Shown here one piece after another: positions 11,940 to 20,765 of a DNA stretch of 64,000 nt (the stretch's first letter is position 1; the number at the start of each line of letters is the position of its first letter). Source of the DNA: Maribacter sedimenticola. GTDB lineage: Bacteria; Bacteroidota; Bacteroidia; Flavobacteriales; Flavobacteriaceae. Under the pieces are notes generated by a model. That model ran no database searches. It saw only the letters and a list, made by a program, of their open reading frames with translations, and was not told the origin of the DNA. A program made the position numbers and the translations under genes. Location of the stretch: positions 167,339-231,338 of the forward strand of contig NZ_FZNV01000002.1 of assembly GCF_900188415.1 (NCBI RefSeq). Reading direction: 5' to 3'.

Positions 11940-12009
11940 ACGAATTCTAGATAATACCCAACGAATACTAAAACCCATCCTTTTTAGCGATTGTTCACTG
12001 TTAGATTTG
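11940..12009 (+). promoter_or_regulatory. Predicted LytTR-regulator direct repeats and promoter before the VIT/VWA gene
   Basis: ACGAATTCTAGAT (11940-11952) and ACGAATACTAAAA (11961-11973) form a direct repeat with a 21-bp period. TAGATTTG at 12002-12009 is a perfect TAnnTTTG -7 element, 41 bp from the start of the second repeat. The same arrangement with the same spacing recurs at 14321-14390. LytTR response regulators bind such two-turn-spaced direct repeats, and one is encoded at 20016-20765. The transcript would start near 12014. Confidence 0.65.
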
Positions 12010-12039
12010 AATAAGAAATATTAATCTAATACAACGATC

Positions 12040-14187
12040 ATGAAACTATTTTACACTTTTTTATTGTGCGCAATCTGTTATGCAGGTTTTTCCCAAGATA
12101 CTGACAGTCCGTATTTATTGGTCTCTACCGAGAACGCCATTATACCTTTAAAATCTTCCATAACAGAAGCAAATATAGCGGGTACCATTGCCCATGTCCG
12201 CGTTACACAAGTGTATCAAAATAAAGGAACGGAGGCTATAGAAGCTAAGTATGTGTTTCCGCTATCTACACAGGCAGCGGTTCATAAAATGCATATGATT
12301 GTTGATGACCGACTTGTAGTTGCCAAAATATTTGAAAAGCAAGAAGCTAAAAAAGTATACGATACCGCCATTGAAGAAGGTAAACGTGCTGCAAAGTTAG
12401 AGCAACATAGACCCAATGTGTTTCAAATGAATGTGGGCAATATTATGCCTGGCGATGAAATTACGATCGACATTTATTATACCGAAATGTTAGTGCCTGT
12501 AAATGGCGAATATCAGTTTGTGGCACCTGCCGTAGTGGGTCCACGATTTACCGGGGAAAGTACTGAAATAGAAGGTGGTTTTGCAATGCCCTACACGGCA
12601 AAAGGTATTGCAGATAGTTTTGATTTCGATATTTCGGTTAGGCTAAACGCAGGTATGGTCATTCAGCATGTCAATAGTACATCACACGAAATTAAAGTGG
12701 ATTATCCTGATGTGAAAACAGCCGAGATTGTACTATCCGAAAAAAATAAAAATCCGTCGAACAGAGATTTTATCTTGAAATACAATTTAAGGGGCAATCA
12801 AATACAAACCGGATTATTGCTATACGAAGGCGAAGAAGAAAACTTCTTTTCTTTTCAAATGGAACCTCACAAGAATGTAGTGTTAGGCGATATTCCTTCA
12901 CGTGAATATTTGTTTATCGTTGATGTATCGGGCTCTATGAACGGTTACCCATTAGAAGTATCGCGAACCTTAATGCGCAATCTTCTATGTGGATTACGAA
13001 TGACGGATACGTTCAATGTTCAGCTATTTGCATCAAGTTCTACCATGTTTAGCGCTGTGCCTGTAGAAATCAACGAGCAGAATATAGAGGCGGCAATTCG
13101 GTTTTTATCGGAAGGCCAAGGCGGTGGAGGCACACAATTGTTAAGTGCACTGCAAACAGCATATAAACTGCCTAGAAAAGATATGAGCGTAGCAAGGTCT
13201 ATGGTGGTCATCACCGACGGCTATGTTAGCGTTGAAAAAGAAGCCTTTGAACTTATACGGAACAATCTAGACCAAGCCAGTGTCTTCACCTTTGGTATCG
13301 GTTCTAGTGTCAATAGGTATTTAGTTGAAGGTATGGCGAAGGTTTCTAACAGCGAATCGTTCATTGCCACAACGTCGGAAGAAGCTGCCGAAGTGGCTAA
13401 AGACTTTGCAAATTATATAGCAACTCCATTATTGACACGAGTAAAGATTGAATCCAAAGGGTTTGATATGTATGACCTTGCCCAAAAGAGCATACCAGAT
13501 GTATTTGCAGCAAGACCGGTTGTGGTTCACGGCAAATATAAGGGTAAGGCAGAAGGGAAAATTATTGTCACCGGATATCAAGGCAAAAAACGCTTTAGAC
13601 AAGTGTATAATGTAACTGACGGACATTTAAGCAAGCGGAACAAAGCCTTGGGTTATTTGTGGGCTAGAAAGCGAATAGGGGAGTTAGATGATTACCACAA
13701 GCTATTTAATGAAGATGTGAAAGCTGAGGTGGTGGCATTAGGACTAAAATATAATTTGCTGACGAATTACACCTCTTTTGTAGCGGTCGATGAAGCCATA
13801 GTCAATAAAAACGGTACGTTGGCGAAAGTAAAACAGCCGTTGCCAATGCCAGAAAACGTAAACAATTCCGCCGTAGGAGCAGAAGCGGAGGTCAAAGAAA
13901 CCAGCAAATTCAAACGCACGTTCAACATAATTTTTGAAGATGAGATAGCAAAGAATGAAAAAAGACAGTTAACGATGGAATTTAAAGTGATGTATGCCAA
14001 ATTAGTATCAGAATACTTGAAAAAGTATGAAAGTCTGCGTATTAAATTCAATGTTCAAGGCAAGGTTATACGTGTAGAAAAATTAGAAAATGGCAGCTGG
14101 TTCGTTGATGAAAGTATGCAGTTAGAATTTGAAAAAATAAGTTTAAAATCCGTTAAAAAAGAAATCACATTAACATTGAAAAAATAG
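12040..14187 (+). CDS. Exported VIT and von Willebrand A domain protein
   Basis: 715 residues. A signal peptide (residues 1-19, ending GFSQ) is followed by a VIT (vault/inter-alpha-trypsin) domain at about 24-155 (VRVTQVYQNKG, YVFPLS, NVGNIMPGDEI). A VWA domain at about 290-460 has a complete MIDAS DVSGS at 295-299, and the C-terminal 200 residues are unassigned. Family members are secreted or membrane-associated adhesion or metal-dependent binding proteins; the ligand is unknown. It has its own promoter with predicted LytTR repeats and its own terminator, and stands at the head of a cluster of exported proteins and a LytS/LytTR pair, suggesting surface sensing or adhesion. Confidence 0.88.
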   Translation: MKLFYTFLLCAICYAGFSQDTDSPYLLVSTENAIIPLKSSITEANIAGTIAHVRVTQVYQNKGTEAIEAKYVFPLSTQAAVHKMHMIVDDRLVVAKIFEKQEAKKVYDTAIEEGKRAAKLEQHRPNVFQMNVGNIMPGDEITIDIYYTEMLVPVNGEYQFVAPAVVGPRFTGESTEIEGGFAMPYTAKGIADSFDFDISVRLNAGMVIQHVNSTSHEIKVDYPDVKTAEIVLSEKNKNPSNRDFILKYNLRGNQIQTGLLLYEGEEENFFSFQMEPHKNVVLGDIPSREYLFIVDVSGSMNGYPLEVSRTLMRNLLCGLRMTDTFNVQLFASSSTMFSAVPVEINEQNIEAAIRFLSEGQGGGGTQLLSALQTAYKLPRKDMSVARSMVVITDGYVSVEKEAFELIRNNLDQASVFTFGIGSSVNRYLVEGMAKVSNSESFIATTSEEAAEVAKDFANYIATPLLTRVKIESKGFDMYDLAQKSIPDVFAARPVVVHGKYKGKAEGKIIVTGYQGKKRFRQVYNVTDGHLSKRNKALGYLWARKRIGELDDYHKLFNEDVKAEVVALGLKYNLLTNYTSFVAVDEAIVNKNGTLAKVKQPLPMPENVNNSAVGAEAEVKETSKFKRTFNIIFEDEIAKNEKRQLTMEFKVMYAKLVSEYLKKYESLRIKFNVQGKVIRVEKLENGSWFVDESMQLEFEKISLKSVKKEITLTLKK

Positions 14188-14226
14188 GTAGTTAGTTTTG
14201 GTTAGTTGGCTCTCCAAAAGGAGAAG

Positions 14227-14266
14227 AAAACCTGTAAGATGTGTGTCATTTTGCAGGTTTTTATTT
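14227..14266 (+). terminator. Terminator after the VIT/VWA gene
   Basis: Arms AAAACCTG (14227-14234) and CAGGTTTT (14254-14261) are perfectly complementary around a 19-base loop and lead into a T-rich stretch. It lies 39 bp after the stop codon. Confidence 0.65.
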
Positions 14267-14320
14267 TGTTATAAATTGAAGAATAAACATGTTGAAACCT
14301 GAATAAATACGGTCTGTTCA

Positions 14321-14390
14321 ACGAATTCTAGATGAACAGCTACGAATACTAGAACAGCCTAATAAAAGCCTTGTCTCGGTAGTAATTTAG
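14321..14390 (+). promoter_or_regulatory. Second copy of the predicted LytTR direct repeats with promoter
   Basis: ACGAATTCTAGAT (14321-14333) and ACGAATACTAGAA (14342-14354) have the same 21-bp period as the copy at 11940. TAATTTAG at 14383-14390 is the -7 element, again 41 bp from the start of the second repeat. Transcription near 14395 would drive the operon from 14424 to the LytTR gene itself, giving autoregulation. Confidence 0.65.
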
Positions 14391-14423: not shown

Positions 14424-14987
14424 ATGAGAAAATTCATCTTTATAGCGTTCGTATTTTGTGTTAGTGCCACTAATGCACAAGAGTTTAATCTAACCGATAC
14501 CTACGATGTTGCCAATCAAAGAACCGTTGGTCAAGAGGAAGAAGATACCTGGGCGGTAGATGTCATTGTAACCAACAATCCAGAGAAGTCTATTGCCACT
14601 TTAAATATTGCAGATTTTGGTCTGTTAGATGAAATAAGAATCTCGGTTTTAGAAGAACCGGCATTAGAAGGTATCACCGAAATTTTGAAAATCACCCTGG
14701 AATATAATACATGTTGTGCAAGTACGGAAGAACAGTATTATTTGGTAACTGCAGATTATGATGTTATAGCGCTGCCTGGTATTAAAAATGAATACGGTTA
14801 TGATCCAATTTCGGATATACACTACATTTTTCCCAATCAACCCTTTGGGAAGGAAGGAACCATACTACGCGCAGTGGTGCAATACACGGAAACCCATACG
14901 ATTAAAGATATCTCAGTTTTAAGAAGTATTGCTTGGAACGATGATGACTTTGGTCAGGAAGAAGCCTTAACGGCAATTAATTATTAA
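14424..14987 (+). CDS. Exported protein of unknown function
   Basis: 187 residues with a clear signal peptide (MRKFIFIAFVFCVSATNAQE, cleavage about residue 18). The mature part is acidic and rich in beta-strand-forming residues, with one adjacent Cys pair (NTCCAS). No family is recognised. It is the first gene of a run of four genes ending in the LytS-type kinase and LytTR regulator, with 18 bp to the next gene, and it has its own predicted LytTR-controlled promoter. The C-terminal half, like that of the next protein, contains a sentence-like pattern of FPNQ/FPSD, T-x-x-x-x-x-I-K-S/D, which hints that the two proteins share a C-terminal domain. Confidence 0.75.
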   Translation: MRKFIFIAFVFCVSATNAQEFNLTDTYDVANQRTVGQEEEDTWAVDVIVTNNPEKSIATLNIADFGLLDEIRISVLEEPALEGITEILKITLEYNTCCASTEEQYYLVTADYDVIALPGIKNEYGYDPISDIHYIFPNQPFGKEGTILRAVVQYTETHTIKDISVLRSIAWNDDDFGQEEALTAINY

Positions 14988-15005
14988 CCCTTAAATTTTA
15001 GAAAA

Positions 15006-15896
15006 ATGAGAAATGTAAAGAAAAGTGCCCTGTTCCTAAGCTTGTTTGCAATGGTAAACTTATTTGCCCAAACAGAACAAGTAGAATTTGAAATTATGGA
15101 CCAAGAAATTCCAGTGGAAGAATTAAATTATGAATACCTGCTTGCACACAAGGTTTTTCTTCGGGAAAAGCCATCGGTGCGAAGTAAAAAAGTAGGTTTG
15201 TTGGATATCGGTACCAAAATGGTATTATGGGAAAAAAGTCTGTACAGCAAAGAAATAGACGGTATAAATAGCCATTGGTACAGGGTTACCACGGAAAATG
15301 AAACCGGATGGGTTTGGGGTGGTATGATAGCTCAAAAATCCTTTGGTAGTATTGCGGACAATCAAGTAAAATTTGTGTACGGTTATGAAAGTAGCACGCA
15401 AAACGAAGCAGGTCTTACCAAGGTAAACTATCAACTTCGGGCTTTTAAAAACGGCCAACAGTTAGATAAGATCGTATTCGATAGCCTACATGCAATACCT
15501 GTTCATATTGAAAACCATGGTAGTCTTGGTTTGTTCAATGTAGAAGATGTTATTACAGTTGATCTGGCCGATGCGGAATCCGGATATCAAGTAGGGAAGA
15601 GCTATGTATTTTGGAACAATGGCAGATTCATAAAAGTGGCAGATTTGGTGGATTATGCCGATAATAATTATTTAAAGACAGAACATTTTGTTTTTCCGTC
15701 TGATATGCAAGGGGTAAAAAGTACCATTCTATTGAAGACAACGATTACGAAGAACATTAAATCCTTAGATGATGCCTTGGCTCAGGATAATGTTGAATTT
15801 ATTACCACACCGTATTCATGGAACGGATCTAAGCTGGTGAAAAAGCAAGAAACCCGTGATATAAAAGATAATGCCGTAGTAAGTATAGACTTTTAA
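15006..15896 (+). CDS. Exported protein with SH3-like (SH3b) domain
   Basis: 296 residues with a signal peptide (about 1-21, ending NLFAQ). An SH3b-like region spans about residues 45-105: LREKPSVRSKKVGLLDIGTK, then a WYRV strand and GWVWGGMIA, the usual closing strand of bacterial SH3 domains. The C-terminal half is unassigned. Bacterial SH3b domains bind peptidoglycan or peptides in the envelope; whether this one does is not known. It is 18 bp after the previous exported protein and 9 bp before the caspase-like gene, so it belongs to the same transcript. Confident as a gene, tentative as to role. Confidence 0.8.
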   Translation: MRNVKKSALFLSLFAMVNLFAQTEQVEFEIMDQEIPVEELNYEYLLAHKVFLREKPSVRSKKVGLLDIGTKMVLWEKSLYSKEIDGINSHWYRVTTENETGWVWGGMIAQKSFGSIADNQVKFVYGYESSTQNEAGLTKVNYQLRAFKNGQQLDKIVFDSLHAIPVHIENHGSLGLFNVEDVITVDLADAESGYQVGKSYVFWNNGRFIKVADLVDYADNNYLKTEHFVFPSDMQGVKSTILLKTTITKNIKSLDDALAQDNVEFITTPYSWNGSKLVKKQETRDIKDNAVVSIDF

Positions 15897-15905
15897 GATA
15901 AAGCA

Positions 15906-16934
15906 ATGATGTATAAGTGTTTTATTATCGTTTTGGTGAGTGTGCTAATGCTTGGTGGCAAGAAGCCGTTTTCGCAGCAGTCGGGAACGGCACTTGCTTT
16001 CCCAAACACGAGCATTCAGGAATCTATCGTATTTATAGCTGGTTTTGATGAGAGTGACAATACCTATTATAGCAATGCAAAACAGTATTTTAAAAAACAG
16101 GGTATGCCTATTGTAGAGGGTTTACATACTATAAATGAGATTATCGCTTACATTAACAATGCAGGGGAGAACCAAGTTCAGTTCAAAGAAATTCACATAG
16201 TAAGTCATAGTAATGCCTGGTTGGGTATGTCCATGAGAATTAAGGAAAATGGCGAACGCATTACCATAAATAGCTTAGAACGTGCAGTTAAGGAGTATAA
16301 CATAGAAACCATTTGCAAAGAATATACAGGCAATACTAAGATTGTTTTTCATTCATGTGGATTGGGCGAAAACAAGGCATTGCTAACAAAATTGAAGCAT
16401 TTTTTTAAGGCAGGTCAAGTAAGTGCATCGCCCTATTTTAATGTATTTGGCGGTAAATATGCAGAACATTACCTGGCAAAACCTTATTATGGGTATTACC
16501 CAACGGCAGAGTCTAAAGGTCCTGCTTTTCTATCCCAAGAATTTAGAGAAAACTACCCAGATGTACATATAGATTGGTTAACTGCTTTAACCACTAGACA
16601 AGAGTCTTCATTTGGTGAGGCTTATAGTTTTAAATTTAATATTCCGGTTGAATGGGAATTTACTTTTGACAACAGCAACGATATGCCTAAATTGGCAGAT
16701 AAGGAAGCTATTATGGATTGGGTTTCAGAATCTCCAGAAATGGCGGAGGTATTGTTTGCCTTACAAATTCCGATAGAAAAATTCCGTTGGAGAAGTACGG
16801 TAAATGGTAATACGCTAATTATTAAAGGAAAAACCACGGTGCTGTGTGTATTGGCACCTATTTTGCAGTCCAATGGTGCCAATGAGTACCAAAATGTGTC
16901 GGTAGAAGACCGTTCGCTTTATCAAATATTATAG
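15906..16934 (+). CDS. Exported protein with caspase-fold-like (DUF4347/CHAT-like) His-Cys pattern
   Basis: 342 residues, N-terminal hydrophobic segment (about 4-18) consistent with export. Between residues 40 and 185 the pattern resembles clan CD peptidases: strand SIVFIAGFD, then EIHIVSHSNAWLG with candidate catalytic His101, then TKIVFHSCGLGEN with candidate Cys151, then VSASPYFNVFGG, which resembles the V-x-A-S-x-x-x-G end of DUF4347 domains. The final 110 residues are unassigned. No function is proven; peptidase activity is inferred from these motifs. It precedes the sensor kinase by 42 bp in one operon. Confidence 0.75.
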   Translation: MMYKCFIIVLVSVLMLGGKKPFSQQSGTALAFPNTSIQESIVFIAGFDESDNTYYSNAKQYFKKQGMPIVEGLHTINEIIAYINNAGENQVQFKEIHIVSHSNAWLGMSMRIKENGERITINSLERAVKEYNIETICKEYTGNTKIVFHSCGLGENKALLTKLKHFFKAGQVSASPYFNVFGGKYAEHYLAKPYYGYYPTAESKGPAFLSQEFRENYPDVHIDWLTALTTRQESSFGEAYSFKFNIPVEWEFTFDNSNDMPKLADKEAIMDWVSESPEMAEVLFALQIPIEKFRWRSTVNGNTLIIKGKTTVLCVLAPILQSNGANEYQNVSVEDRSLYQIL

Positions 16935-16976
16935 TAGCAATGGCGTTAGTTTAATACATAAAAGAAATCCGTTTTT

Positions 16977-19900
16977 TTGAATCCGATTATTAAATACTTG
17001 TTGATTGTTTGCTGTTGTTTTGGTACAATACAATTGGTTGCGCAAAACAGTCAGCTACGGTCATATACCATTGCAGATGGTTTACCGCAATCACAGGTAT
17101 ATGATATTGTACAAGATGATATGGGCTACTTGTGGCTAGGGACTCAAGGTGGCGGACTGGCAAATTTTGACGGAGAAATTTTTGAAGTATGGAATGAGAG
17201 TGATGGCTTGCTTTCCAATTATATTAATGCACTTTACGCCGTTAACGACTCCTTGTTTATTGGAACAAAAAAAGGACTTTCCATAAAAGTAAAAAACAAC
17301 TTTGTTAATCTAGAAGCTCCGCAAATTCTTCAATTTTTTCCAGTTGATGGTCAGTTGTTTTTAGCGACCAAAAATGGACTCTATGCCTACAGTAAAAATA
17401 AGCTGGTAAGCAAGGTTAATTTCAATTCAGAAATTGACAATAGTGAAATCAATTCGGTTTTTTTTGATGGAAATTATTACTGGCTAGCGACCAATAAAGC
17501 TTTGTGGAAATTAAAGGAATTGAGTAACAACACTACCGAAATTATAAAAATTGAGAAGAATAATTTTAAGTCGGTCATAGCACATAACAACCACATCATT
17601 GCAGCAACCTTTGATGATGGTGTTTTTATAATCGATAAGGCTACAACCAATAATCGCTTTTTAATGCCGGAGCCCTCACGTATAAATTCCATGTCAATTC
17701 AAAATGAAGATGAGTTGTGGATAGCTACTGATAATGAGGGAGTTACCATTGTGGAGACCAAAACATTTTCAGAAATAAAAAGATTGAATACAGCCAATGG
17801 GTTGGCAACACCACACATAAGAAAGGTTATAAATGATGAAAACGGCAATATTTGGATTGCTACATCAGGTGGCGGATTCTATAAGTATTTTCAGAACAAT
17901 TTTAAACATTATGATCAGCGAACAGGCTTAAAGGGCAATCGCATTTATGCGGTCCATAACGCTCCGGACGGATTATGGTTTTCCACTTCGGAAAAAGGCT
18001 TGACAAAAATTGATTCCGAAGGCATTCATCCACTACCTAACGAGAGTACTTTTTTTGATGTAAAAATCAAGACCATCACTAGTGATGCCAAGGGCAATAT
18101 TTGGGCAGGGTCGGATAATAGAGGTTTACTTTTTAGAGAGACCAAAATGGTAGACAGTTTGGTGTTTTCATCGAGCGAAAATTACCTCATACAAATTGAT
18201 ACGGTTTCGGTAGAACGTACCACAAATCATATCATTGATGAAAGCAAAGGATTTCCTTCGGATTGGGTTAGAACCGTAATTGCAGACGATGATTACATAT
18301 GGGCGGCAACCTATGCAAACGGAATTGTAAAATTCAAGTATTATTCAGAAAAGGATAGTTTGGTCGTTCATAAAACATTTACCAAGCGAGATGGCATAAC
18401 GGATATGCTCATTACAAGTTTGGTAAAGGACCAAAACGATAGGTTTTGGTATGCTACAAAAAACGGATATCTAGGGTATATTGAGCATAATAAAGTTGCT
18501 ACGGTCACCACTGACTTGGAACAACAAACCGCAATAGGAACTATTTTGTTTCAAGGAGATTATATTTTTCTGGGTACATCTGGTAAGGGAATTTGGTATG
18601 CGAACAGCACGAATCCGGTAAATTTTCAGCAGCTGAAAGGTAGTAAGCGCTTATCGTCCAATAACGTATATCAGCTTATTTTTGATGACCAAGGCAACCT
18701 GTGGGCAGGTTCTGAACGCGGTGTTGATAAAATAGAACTTAACGCAACGAACGAAATTGTAGATATCTATCATTTTGGTAGAAACGACGGATTCTTAGGT
18801 ATAGAAACCTGCTTAAATGCGGTCGATAAAGATGAGGATGGCAATTTGTGGTTTGGTGCTATTTATGGGTTGACCAAGCATATCCCTAGCGAAAGTAAGA
18901 AAACAGCGGCTGCACCAAAAGTATATTTTACGGGAGTAGAAGAGCGGTATAAAACTATCGATTCCTTGATCTTAAAAGATTGGACGAATACGAACAAAAT
19001 TTTACAATTAACTCCCGATCAAACACAATTGGGTTTTTCCTTTAGAACGGTAGATGTTGACCACCCAAACGAAGTAGCGTATAGAACTCGGTTAGATGAT
19101 AATGAATGGAGCCCTTGGGTAAAGGAGAACAAGCAGAATTTTGCAGGTTTGGCGTATGGCGCACATACTTTTTCGGTACAATCCAGAAATTACAGATGGC
19201 AAGAAAGTGAACCTATAGCATTCCGTTTTTTCATTGATAGTCCGATATACCAAAAAGACTGGTTTCAATGGTCGGTTTTGGCATTGGCGGTGGTACTATT
19301 GTTAAGCTTTGGATGGTGGTATATACGTAAGATAAAGGCAAAAAATAGAGCGGAACAAGAACGATTGAAAACACAAAACTATTTGTTGACCTTAGAGCAA
19401 AAAGCGCTTCAGTTACAAATGAATCCGCATTTCATTTTTAATGTTTTAAATGGTGTAAAGGCAATGGCAGGCACCAAACCAGATAAGATGGATGCTACCA
19501 TTAATAGTTTTGCCATACTGTTACGTGAAACACTTCAAAATTCAAGAAAAGAGCATATCGGTTTAGATCAAGAAATAAAGGCATTAAAACATTACATAGA
19601 GGTAGAACAGTTAATGGCGCAGAAGCCTTTTGAATACGCGATAAAAGTTAAAACCACTCCCGATGCCGAAGAGATATTGATACCGCCCATGCTTATTCAG
19701 CCATTTGTGGAGAATGCCATAAGACACGGAATATTAAAAGGAGAAAAGGAAGGGAAATTGGAGATAGGCTTTACTACCTCAAAAACCCATTTGCATTGTA
19801 GTATCATTGATAACGGACTGGGTATTTTTAAATCACAGAGCGAAAAGGCAAAAACGGACCATCAATCAATGGCATTGACCGTTACCAAAGAAAGATTGGC

Positions 19901-20009
19901 ATCCATTGCAGGTAAAAATACCTTGCATATCAGTGAAATTAAAAATGAAGACGGTAGCGTTGAAGGAACCAAGATTGCCTTTAAAATACCATTACTAACA
20001 GATTATTAA
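16977..20009 (+). CDS. Two-component propeller sensor with LytS-type histidine kinase
   Basis: 1010 residues. Signal peptide about 1-23; two seven-bladed Reg_prop beta-propellers (about 25-660; repeated D-x-x-G-x-L/I-W-x-G/A-T motifs), Y_Y_Y domain (about 690-765, ending FFIDSPIYQ), one membrane helix (about 770-790), short coiled coil, His_kinase domain with phospho-His in LQMNPHFIFN (about 818), and a HATPase domain (FVENAIRHGI, DNGLGI). It should sense a periplasmic ligand. The only usable start is TTG at 16977: an in-frame TAA lies at 16959 and no ATG precedes the signal peptide. The LytTR partner follows 6 bp later. Confidence 0.9.
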   Translation: MNPIIKYLLIVCCCFGTIQLVAQNSQLRSYTIADGLPQSQVYDIVQDDMGYLWLGTQGGGLANFDGEIFEVWNESDGLLSNYINALYAVNDSLFIGTKKGLSIKVKNNFVNLEAPQILQFFPVDGQLFLATKNGLYAYSKNKLVSKVNFNSEIDNSEINSVFFDGNYYWLATNKALWKLKELSNNTTEIIKIEKNNFKSVIAHNNHIIAATFDDGVFIIDKATTNNRFLMPEPSRINSMSIQNEDELWIATDNEGVTIVETKTFSEIKRLNTANGLATPHIRKVINDENGNIWIATSGGGFYKYFQNNFKHYDQRTGLKGNRIYAVHNAPDGLWFSTSEKGLTKIDSEGIHPLPNESTFFDVKIKTITSDAKGNIWAGSDNRGLLFRETKMVDSLVFSSSENYLIQIDTVSVERTTNHIIDESKGFPSDWVRTVIADDDYIWAATYANGIVKFKYYSEKDSLVVHKTFTKRDGITDMLITSLVKDQNDRFWYATKNGYLGYIEHNKVATVTTDLEQQTAIGTILFQGDYIFLGTSGKGIWYANSTNPVNFQQLKGSKRLSSNNVYQLIFDDQGNLWAGSERGVDKIELNATNEIVDIYHFGRNDGFLGIETCLNAVDKDEDGNLWFGAIYGLTKHIPSESKKTAAAPKVYFTGVEERYKTIDSLILKDWTNTNKILQLTPDQTQLGFSFRTVDVDHPNEVAYRTRLDDNEWSPWVKENKQNFAGLAYGAHTFSVQSRNYRWQESEPIAFRFFIDSPIYQKDWFQWSVLALAVVLLLSFGWWYIRKIKAKNRAEQERLKTQNYLLTLEQKALQLQMNPHFIFNVLNGVKAMAGTKPDKMDATINSFAILLRETLQNSRKEHIGLDQEIKALKHYIEVEQLMAQKPFEYAIKVKTTPDAEEILIPPMLIQPFVENAIRHGILKGEKEGKLEIGFTTSKTHLHCSIIDNGLGIFKSQSEKAKTDHQSMALTVTKERLASIAGKNTLHISEIKNEDGSVEGTKIAFKIPLLTDY

Positions 20010-20015
20010 ACACCT

Positions 20016-20765
20016 ATGCATACAGCGATAATAGTAGAAGATATGATTGACGCCTTAACCCTTTTAAAAAAGGATATTGAGACGCAACACCCAGAAATTG
20101 GAATTATCGCCACGGCGCAGAGTGTAGTGGAAGCTGCCAAAGTACTGCGTAAAAATCAGCCGGATATTCTGTTTTTAGATATCATGTTAGGTGACGGTAC
20201 AGGTTTTGATATTTTGGAAATTTTCCCCGACTTAAAATCGAAAATTATATTCGTAACAGCAAGTGATGAGTTCGCGATAAGAGCCTTTAAATTTGCCGCA
20301 ATCGATTATGTGTTAAAACCCTATTCCAACGAAGATTTAAGCTTGGCAATTGCAAGGGCAAAGGAGCAGTTACAGCCCAATAAAGAGCGTTTGCAGATTT
20401 TAAAGGAGACCATTTCAGCGCCAGAGAAAAAACCTAATAAGATATCGTTACACACACTTGACCAAATTATCATTGTCAGTCTAGATGATATTATCAGGTG
20501 TGAATCCGATAGTAACAACACCATTTTCCACCTTCAAGACAAACGCAAGATATTCGTTACAAAGACCCTAAAATACTTTGCCGATTTATTAAGCAGTCAC
20601 GATTTTGTTCGTGTACACCAAAGTCACTTGGTCAACCTACAATGCATCAGCGCCTATATCAAAACCGATGGTGGTTATCTAATGCTCAAGAATGGAGAAA
20701 ATGTTCCCGTTTCGGTTAGAAAGAAAACCGAGATTATAGATATTTTGGATAAGATGCATAAATAG
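20016..20765 (+). CDS. LytTR family response regulator
   Basis: 249 residues: REC domain (about 1-118) with phospho-acceptor Asp55 in LFLDIMLGDG and Lys in VLKPY, then a LytTR DNA-binding domain (about 145-249; IRCESDSNNTIF, HQSHLVNL, VPVSVRKK). It is the cognate partner of the preceding kinase (6 bp gap). LytTR proteins bind pairs of direct repeats; matching repeats occur upstream of 12040 and 14424, so the predicted regulon is this cluster, including itself. Confidence 0.93.
   Translation: MHTAIIVEDMIDALTLLKKDIETQHPEIGIIATAQSVVEAAKVLRKNQPDILFLDIMLGDGTGFDILEIFPDLKSKIIFVTASDEFAIRAFKFAAIDYVLKPYSNEDLSLAIARAKEQLQPNKERLQILKETISAPEKKPNKISLHTLDQIIIVSLDDIIRCESDSNNTIFHLQDKRKIFVTKTLKYFADLLSSHDFVRVHQSHLVNLQCISAYIKTDGGYLMLKNGENVPVSVRKKTEIIDILDKMHK

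What the first reader, a model, noticed from the sequence alone, without database searches (positions are those of the whole stretch)
11940..14390. Duplicated LytTR-type operator-promoter modules with conserved 21-bp repeat period and 41-bp spacing
ACGAATTCTAGAT-N8-ACGAATACTA occurs at 11940 and again at 14321, each followed 41 bp after the second repeat start by a TAnnTTTG-like element. The pair in a cluster ending with a LytTR regulator is a strong prediction of its binding site and of autoregulation.
Basis: seen in the sequence. Interest (0 to 1): 0.7.

Follow-up and report, generated by a model that had tools for sequence, protein, structure and literature searches.

The report
Conserved LytTR operator pair and regulon
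Two near-identical 31-base switch sites sit in front of two gene units of a marine bacterium (Maribacter), and the same sites accompany the same LytTR regulator in every relative checked, which makes them its probable on-switch for itself and a small set of secreted proteins; the kind of switch is known, but this site and its gene set appear not to have been described.

Summary
ACGAATTCTAGAT-N8-ACGAATACTA lies at 11940 and 14321, each with a TAnnTTTG-like -7 box exactly 41 bp after the second repeat starts. The genome holds no other copy within 3 mismatches (4.27 Mb, 18 LytTR proteins). Of 399 Flavobacteriaceae genomes, 27 have the exact motif ACGAATWCTA-N11-ACGAATWCTA; 26 of them encode the response-regulator ortholog (Fisher p=5e-34). 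All 32 genomes with the ortholog have the motif, at most 2 mismatches. In 84 of 85 non-redundant sites the -7 box is at the same spacing (+/-1 bp). The usual -33 TTG is absent. The two copies share only the operator and the -7 box, so they are not a duplicated block. Best reading: the operator of the LytTR response regulator (20016-20765), which activates the VIT-VWA gene and, from a second promoter, the operon that ends in its own kinase and itself. Family-wide targets include VIT-VWA, a 187-aa beta protein, an SH3 protein, a DUF4347-like protein and, in Aquimarina, a small membrane protein. Binding, activation and signal are inferred, not shown. It is a new member of a known kind.

The parts
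11940..11970 (+). Operator 1: direct repeats ACGAATTCTA / ACGAATACTA, 21-bp period, upstream of the VIT-VWA gene
12002..12009 (+). -7 box TAGATTTG of promoter 1
   Evidence: fixed spacing in relatives
12040..14187 (+). Secreted VIT-VWA protein (715 aa), inter-alpha-trypsin heavy-chain-like; first target unit
14226..14262 (+). Terminator-like hairpin between VIT-VWA and operator 2
   Evidence: and inverted repeat; count in region not above shuffles
14321..14351 (+). Operator 2: direct repeats ACGAATTCTA / ACGAATACTA, 21-bp period, upstream of the operon that ends in kinase and LytTR RR
14383..14390 (+). -7 box TAATTTAG of promoter 2
14424..14987 (+). 187-aa protein with putative signal peptide, predicted all-beta, no family
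15006..15896 (+). 296-aa protein with a bacterial SH3 domain
15906..16934 (+). 342-aa DUF4347-like protein with conserved HS and HSCG motifs
16977..20009 (+). Histidine kinase with Reg_prop propeller repeats and LytS-type His_kinase domain
20016..20765 (+). Response regulator, receiver plus LytTR DNA-binding domain; proposed binder of both operators

Best explanation
The two 31-bp sites are the operator of the cluster's own LytTR response regulator (20016-20765). A phosphorylated RR dimer probably places one LytTR domain on each ACGAATWCTA half-site, two helical turns apart on one face of the DNA, from about -74 to -44 relative to the inferred start. There it recruits sigma-A RNA polymerase to a promoter that has a TAnnTTTG -7 box but no -33 TTG. 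The kinase with the propeller sensor thus switches on (1) the secreted VIT-VWA protein and (2) the operon 14424-20765, which includes the kinase and RR themselves, giving positive autoregulation. Shown: the sequences, fixed geometry, conservation and co-occurrence with the RR. Inferred: binding, activation rather than repression, phosphorylation and the signal.
For: Only two copies in the genome, although it encodes 18 LytTR proteins. 26 of 27 motif-bearing family genomes carry the RR ortholog, and it occurs in 32 of 399 (Fisher p=5e-34). The six RR genomes without an exact motif have it with 1-2 mismatches upstream of the same kinase-RR operon, and Tenacibaculum-type loci whose flank was too short have it just outside. 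The only genes common to the motif-bearing RR loci are kinase and RR, because the first operon gene varies: g2 in Aquimarina, g3 in Psychroserpens, g4 in G147 and G165. The -7 box is at offset 61-63 in 84 of 85 non-redundant sites; TTG at offset 41 (the -33 position) in 0 of 143. An unsupervised repeat search found this motif in the main locus and none in three paralogous LytTR loci. Repeats with an 11-bp gap ending about 10 bp upstream of the -33/-35 position match published LytTR promoters, including Bacteroides ones with TATCTTTG boxes (PMC6193735; PMC11347149).
Against: No binding or expression data. The half-site does not obviously match the broad literature LytTR consensus (recalled, not tested). 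Co-occurrence cannot fully separate RR binding from another factor always inherited with it. Two exact copies in other genomes (G348, G259) lie beside a different LytTR system (L183, L193), so a second LytTR protein may read the same sequence. In some Tenacibaculum/Algibacter-type loci extra genes lie between the target genes and the kinase, so autoregulation is less sure there.
Confidence: 0.85

Rival explanations
1. The sites are bound by a different LytTR regulator encoded elsewhere, or by several LytTR paralogs that share the code; the adjacent RR is not the main binder.
For: Exact copies in G348 and G259 lie next to a different LytTR two-component system, in front of small lipoprotein genes with the same operator-to-ATG distance of about 98 bp. 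The genome has 18 LytTR proteins.
Against: 366 of 367 sampled family genomes without the RR ortholog lack the exact motif, and three paralogous LytTR loci in the genus lack it.
Confidence: 0.08
2. The RR binds the sites but represses rather than activates, or does both depending on phosphorylation.
For: The LytTR regulator CoxC is a repressor (PMC11347149).
Against: CoxC's operator overlaps the -35 box. Here the operator ends about 10 bp upstream of that region and the -33 TTG is missing, which fits an activator-dependent promoter.
Confidence: 0.08
3. The two modules are a recent segmental duplication or a small mobile repeat, without regulatory meaning.
For: Two near-identical 31-bp stretches 2.4 kb apart.
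Against: Flanks and spacers are at background identity; each copy is kept at its orthologous place in other genera; no further copies.
Confidence: 0.01

Closest known systems
LytTR regulatory systems (HdrRM/BrsRM) and Bacteroides 'LRS-like' operons (PMC6193735)
   Same: Direct repeats with an 11-12 bp gap about 10-11 bp upstream of the -35/-33 element; predicted or shown autoactivation; the Bacteroides cases have a TATCTTTG -7 box.
   Different: Those pair a LytTR protein with a membrane inhibitor or use a membrane-bound LytTR regulator. Here it is a classic kinase and receiver-LytTR response regulator, and the repeat sequence is different.
AgrA P2/P3 operators of Staphylococcus aureus (PMC4227749)
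   Different: Proximal repeat centre at about -60 (here about -48), different sequence, different sensor kinase and targets.
BtsR and YpdB (E. coli LytS/LytTR two-component systems)
   Same: LytTR response regulator with a PF06580-type kinase; BtsR was the best NCBIfam hit of the RR, below its cut-off.
   Different: Different sensor (propeller repeats), targets and site; not an equivalog by the curated cut-off.

Membership tests
LytTR response regulator | Receiver domain plus LytTR DNA-binding domain above curated cut-offs | tested here: met
   LytTR 65.8 bits (cut-off 22.6), Response_reg 58.7 (30.2)
LytTR operator | Pair of 9-10 bp direct repeats separated by 10-13 bp | tested here: met
   10-bp repeats, 11-bp gap; rule from PMC11347149
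LytTR operator | Placed just upstream of the -35/-33 region of a promoter | tested here: met
   31 bp separate the operator from TAnnTTTG in 72 of 85 non-redundant sites, +/-1 bp in 84
LytTR operator | Bound by a LytTR protein in vitro | not testable with these tools
   no experiment
LytTR operator | Agreement with the broad literature consensus half-site | not tested
   Only compared by eye from memory; resemblance weak. PMC6193735 notes that functional repeats may diverge from the consensus
Autoregulated two-component operon | Operator in front of the transcription unit that encodes kinase and RR | tested here: met
   Window gene order with gaps of 6-42 bp; operator found in all 32 RR genomes, mostly upstream of the kinase-RR operon itself. 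Co-transcription itself not shown
Autoregulated two-component operon | Expression depends on its own RR | not testable with these tools
   no expression data

The most novel reading that the evidence does not exclude
A dedicated, nearly invariant LytTR operator defines a family-wide regulon for an undescribed envelope or surface response in Flavobacteriaceae: a propeller kinase senses an external state and induces a secreted VIT-VWA protein, a DUF4347-like (possibly caspase-fold) protein and accessory secreted proteins. In Aquimarina it also drives a conserved 45-52 aa membrane protein that might feed back on the kinase.
Probability: 0.3. Interest if true: 0.65.

Novelty: new member of a known kind. 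Interest (0 to 1): 0.5.

Why it matters
Few LytTR binding sites seem to be known in Bacteroidota. A site this constant (most of 20 half-site positions nearly fixed across about 20 genera, with fixed spacing to the -7 box) gives a ready operator for binding studies, a searchable regulon signature, and an entry to VIT-VWA and DUF4347-like surface proteins whose role is unknown.

Tried and rejected
A loose pattern (3 mismatches) rings at background level in all genus genomes and is useless on its own. Fold searches of the DUF4347-like and 187-aa proteins gave no match at E<=0.001: only weak flavodoxin/caspase-type and PliI lysozyme-inhibitor-like hits. An early idea that the second Aquimarina sites drive a small RNA was dropped: they lead into a conserved small ORF, not found in the window's genome (a weak test). 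Paper searches found no description of this motif or system (only open-licence papers are held). Segmental duplication was rejected.

Full report
Observation. The sequence holds ACGAATTCTAGAT-N8-ACGAATACTA at 11940 and 14321. In the whole genome (G000, 4.27 Mb) these are the only matches with up to three mismatches. With half-sites relaxed to ACGAATNCTA, the other genome matches need three mismatches and are at the level of the reversed control. The -7 boxes TAGATTTG (12002) and TAATTTAG (14383) both begin 41 bp after the second repeat starts. The finding is therefore exact and far above chance.

Setting. Operator 1 precedes a 715-aa secreted VIT-VWA protein (12040-14187). A terminator-like hairpin (14226-14262) follows; the scan finds as many such sites in shuffled sequence, so it is weak support. 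Operator 2 precedes a tight same-strand series: 187-aa protein, SH3 protein, 342-aa DUF4347-like protein, Reg_prop/His_kinase sensor kinase and receiver-LytTR response regulator. The gaps are 18, 9, 42 and 6 bp.

Conservation. RR orthologs from named genomes place the window in or beside Maribacter and show the locus in Tenacibaculum, Algibacter, Bizionia, Psychroserpens, Aquimarina and others. The motif lies upstream in nearly all of these loci. Several loci that seemed to lack it were simply cut short: the genomes of L080, L081, L082 and L074 have it just beyond the held flank or on the same short contig. Gene content varies, and the constant partners are kinase and RR: Aquimarina keeps g2-kinase-RR, Psychroserpens g3-kinase-RR, G147 and G165 g4-kinase-RR.

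Co-occurrence. In the same 399 family genomes, 27 have the exact motif and 32 have the RR ortholog at E<=1e-70, with 26 shared; Fisher p=5e-34. Related genomes are not independent, so the p-value is only indicative. The six RR genomes without an exact motif have 1-2 mismatch versions upstream of the same operon. The one motif genome without the ortholog (G348) carries its copy beside another LytTR two-component system; G259 has a copy in a similar setting, away from its RR ortholog. In the order-level sample every genome with the exact motif belongs to the window's own family.

Geometry. Over 113 sites, both half-sites are nearly invariant and are followed by A/G-A-A, while the flanks are unconserved. 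In 85 non-redundant exact sites the TAnnTTTG box starts at offset 62 in 72 and at 61-63 in 84. TTG at the -33 position (offset 41) occurs in none of 143. The -7 box is the sigma-A box of flavobacteria, at -12 to -5 (PMC9723704), so the operator spans about -74 to -44. Published LytTR operators are 9-bp direct repeats 10-13 bp apart (PMC11347149), with a bias to lie 10 bp upstream of the -35 box, and two Bacteroides examples precede a TATCTTTG box (PMC6193735). AgrA's proximal repeat is centred near -60 (PMC4227749). The present sites fit this class, in an activator position.

Specificity. The genome has 18 LytTR proteins, yet the operator occurs only here. An unsupervised search for conserved 20-23-bp-period repeats finds this motif in the main locus and nothing in three paralogous LytTR loci of the genus.

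Not a duplicated block. Between the two window copies, identity is 24/80 upstream, 25/31 in the operator, 11/31 in the spacer and 5/8 in the -7 box; relatives behave alike. Two promoters keep the same operator independently.

Regulon. Across genomes the operator stands before VIT-VWA genes (also unlinked, G085), g2-, g3- or g4-led kinase operons, a lipoprotein unit in G214 and G387, and in Aquimarina a conserved 45-52 aa protein with one predicted membrane helix beside a DCC-family gene. Most look like envelope or secreted proteins; the signal is unknown.

Verdict. It is an ordinary type of regulation with an unusually clear and apparently undescribed operator and regulon. Binding, activation and autoregulation await experiment.

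Noticed in passing
L194:8060-8780 (genome G005): A large deletion fuses the first ~110 residues of the VIT-VWA protein in frame to the LytTR domain of the RR (204-aa ORF); operator and -7 box are intact. Could be a real deletion or an assembly error.
   Followed up: partly
L197, L200, L204, L205, L225, L184, L227-L229: In Aquimarina and a related genome the operator drives a conserved 45-52 aa membrane protein (MK-LLP--LICFT--CL-FVHIDN) next to a DCC-family gene; the leader has a short hairpin and often a T-run right after the predicted start, possibly an attenuator.
   Followed up: partly
L183:8955-8985 (G348) and L193:2863-2893 (G259): The same operator beside a different LytTR two-component system (other kinase type), in front of small lipoprotein genes.
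   Followed up: partly
window 15906-16934: 342-aa DUF4347-like protein with near-invariant HS and HSCG motifs, a possible His-Cys dyad; the L195 and L189 orthologs lack the cysteine and the HS of the first motif.
   Followed up: partly
L080, L082, L086 between g4 and the kinase: Extra genes inserted in the operon: a ~1500-aa repeat protein, or beta-lactamase-like serine hydrolases.
   Followed up: no
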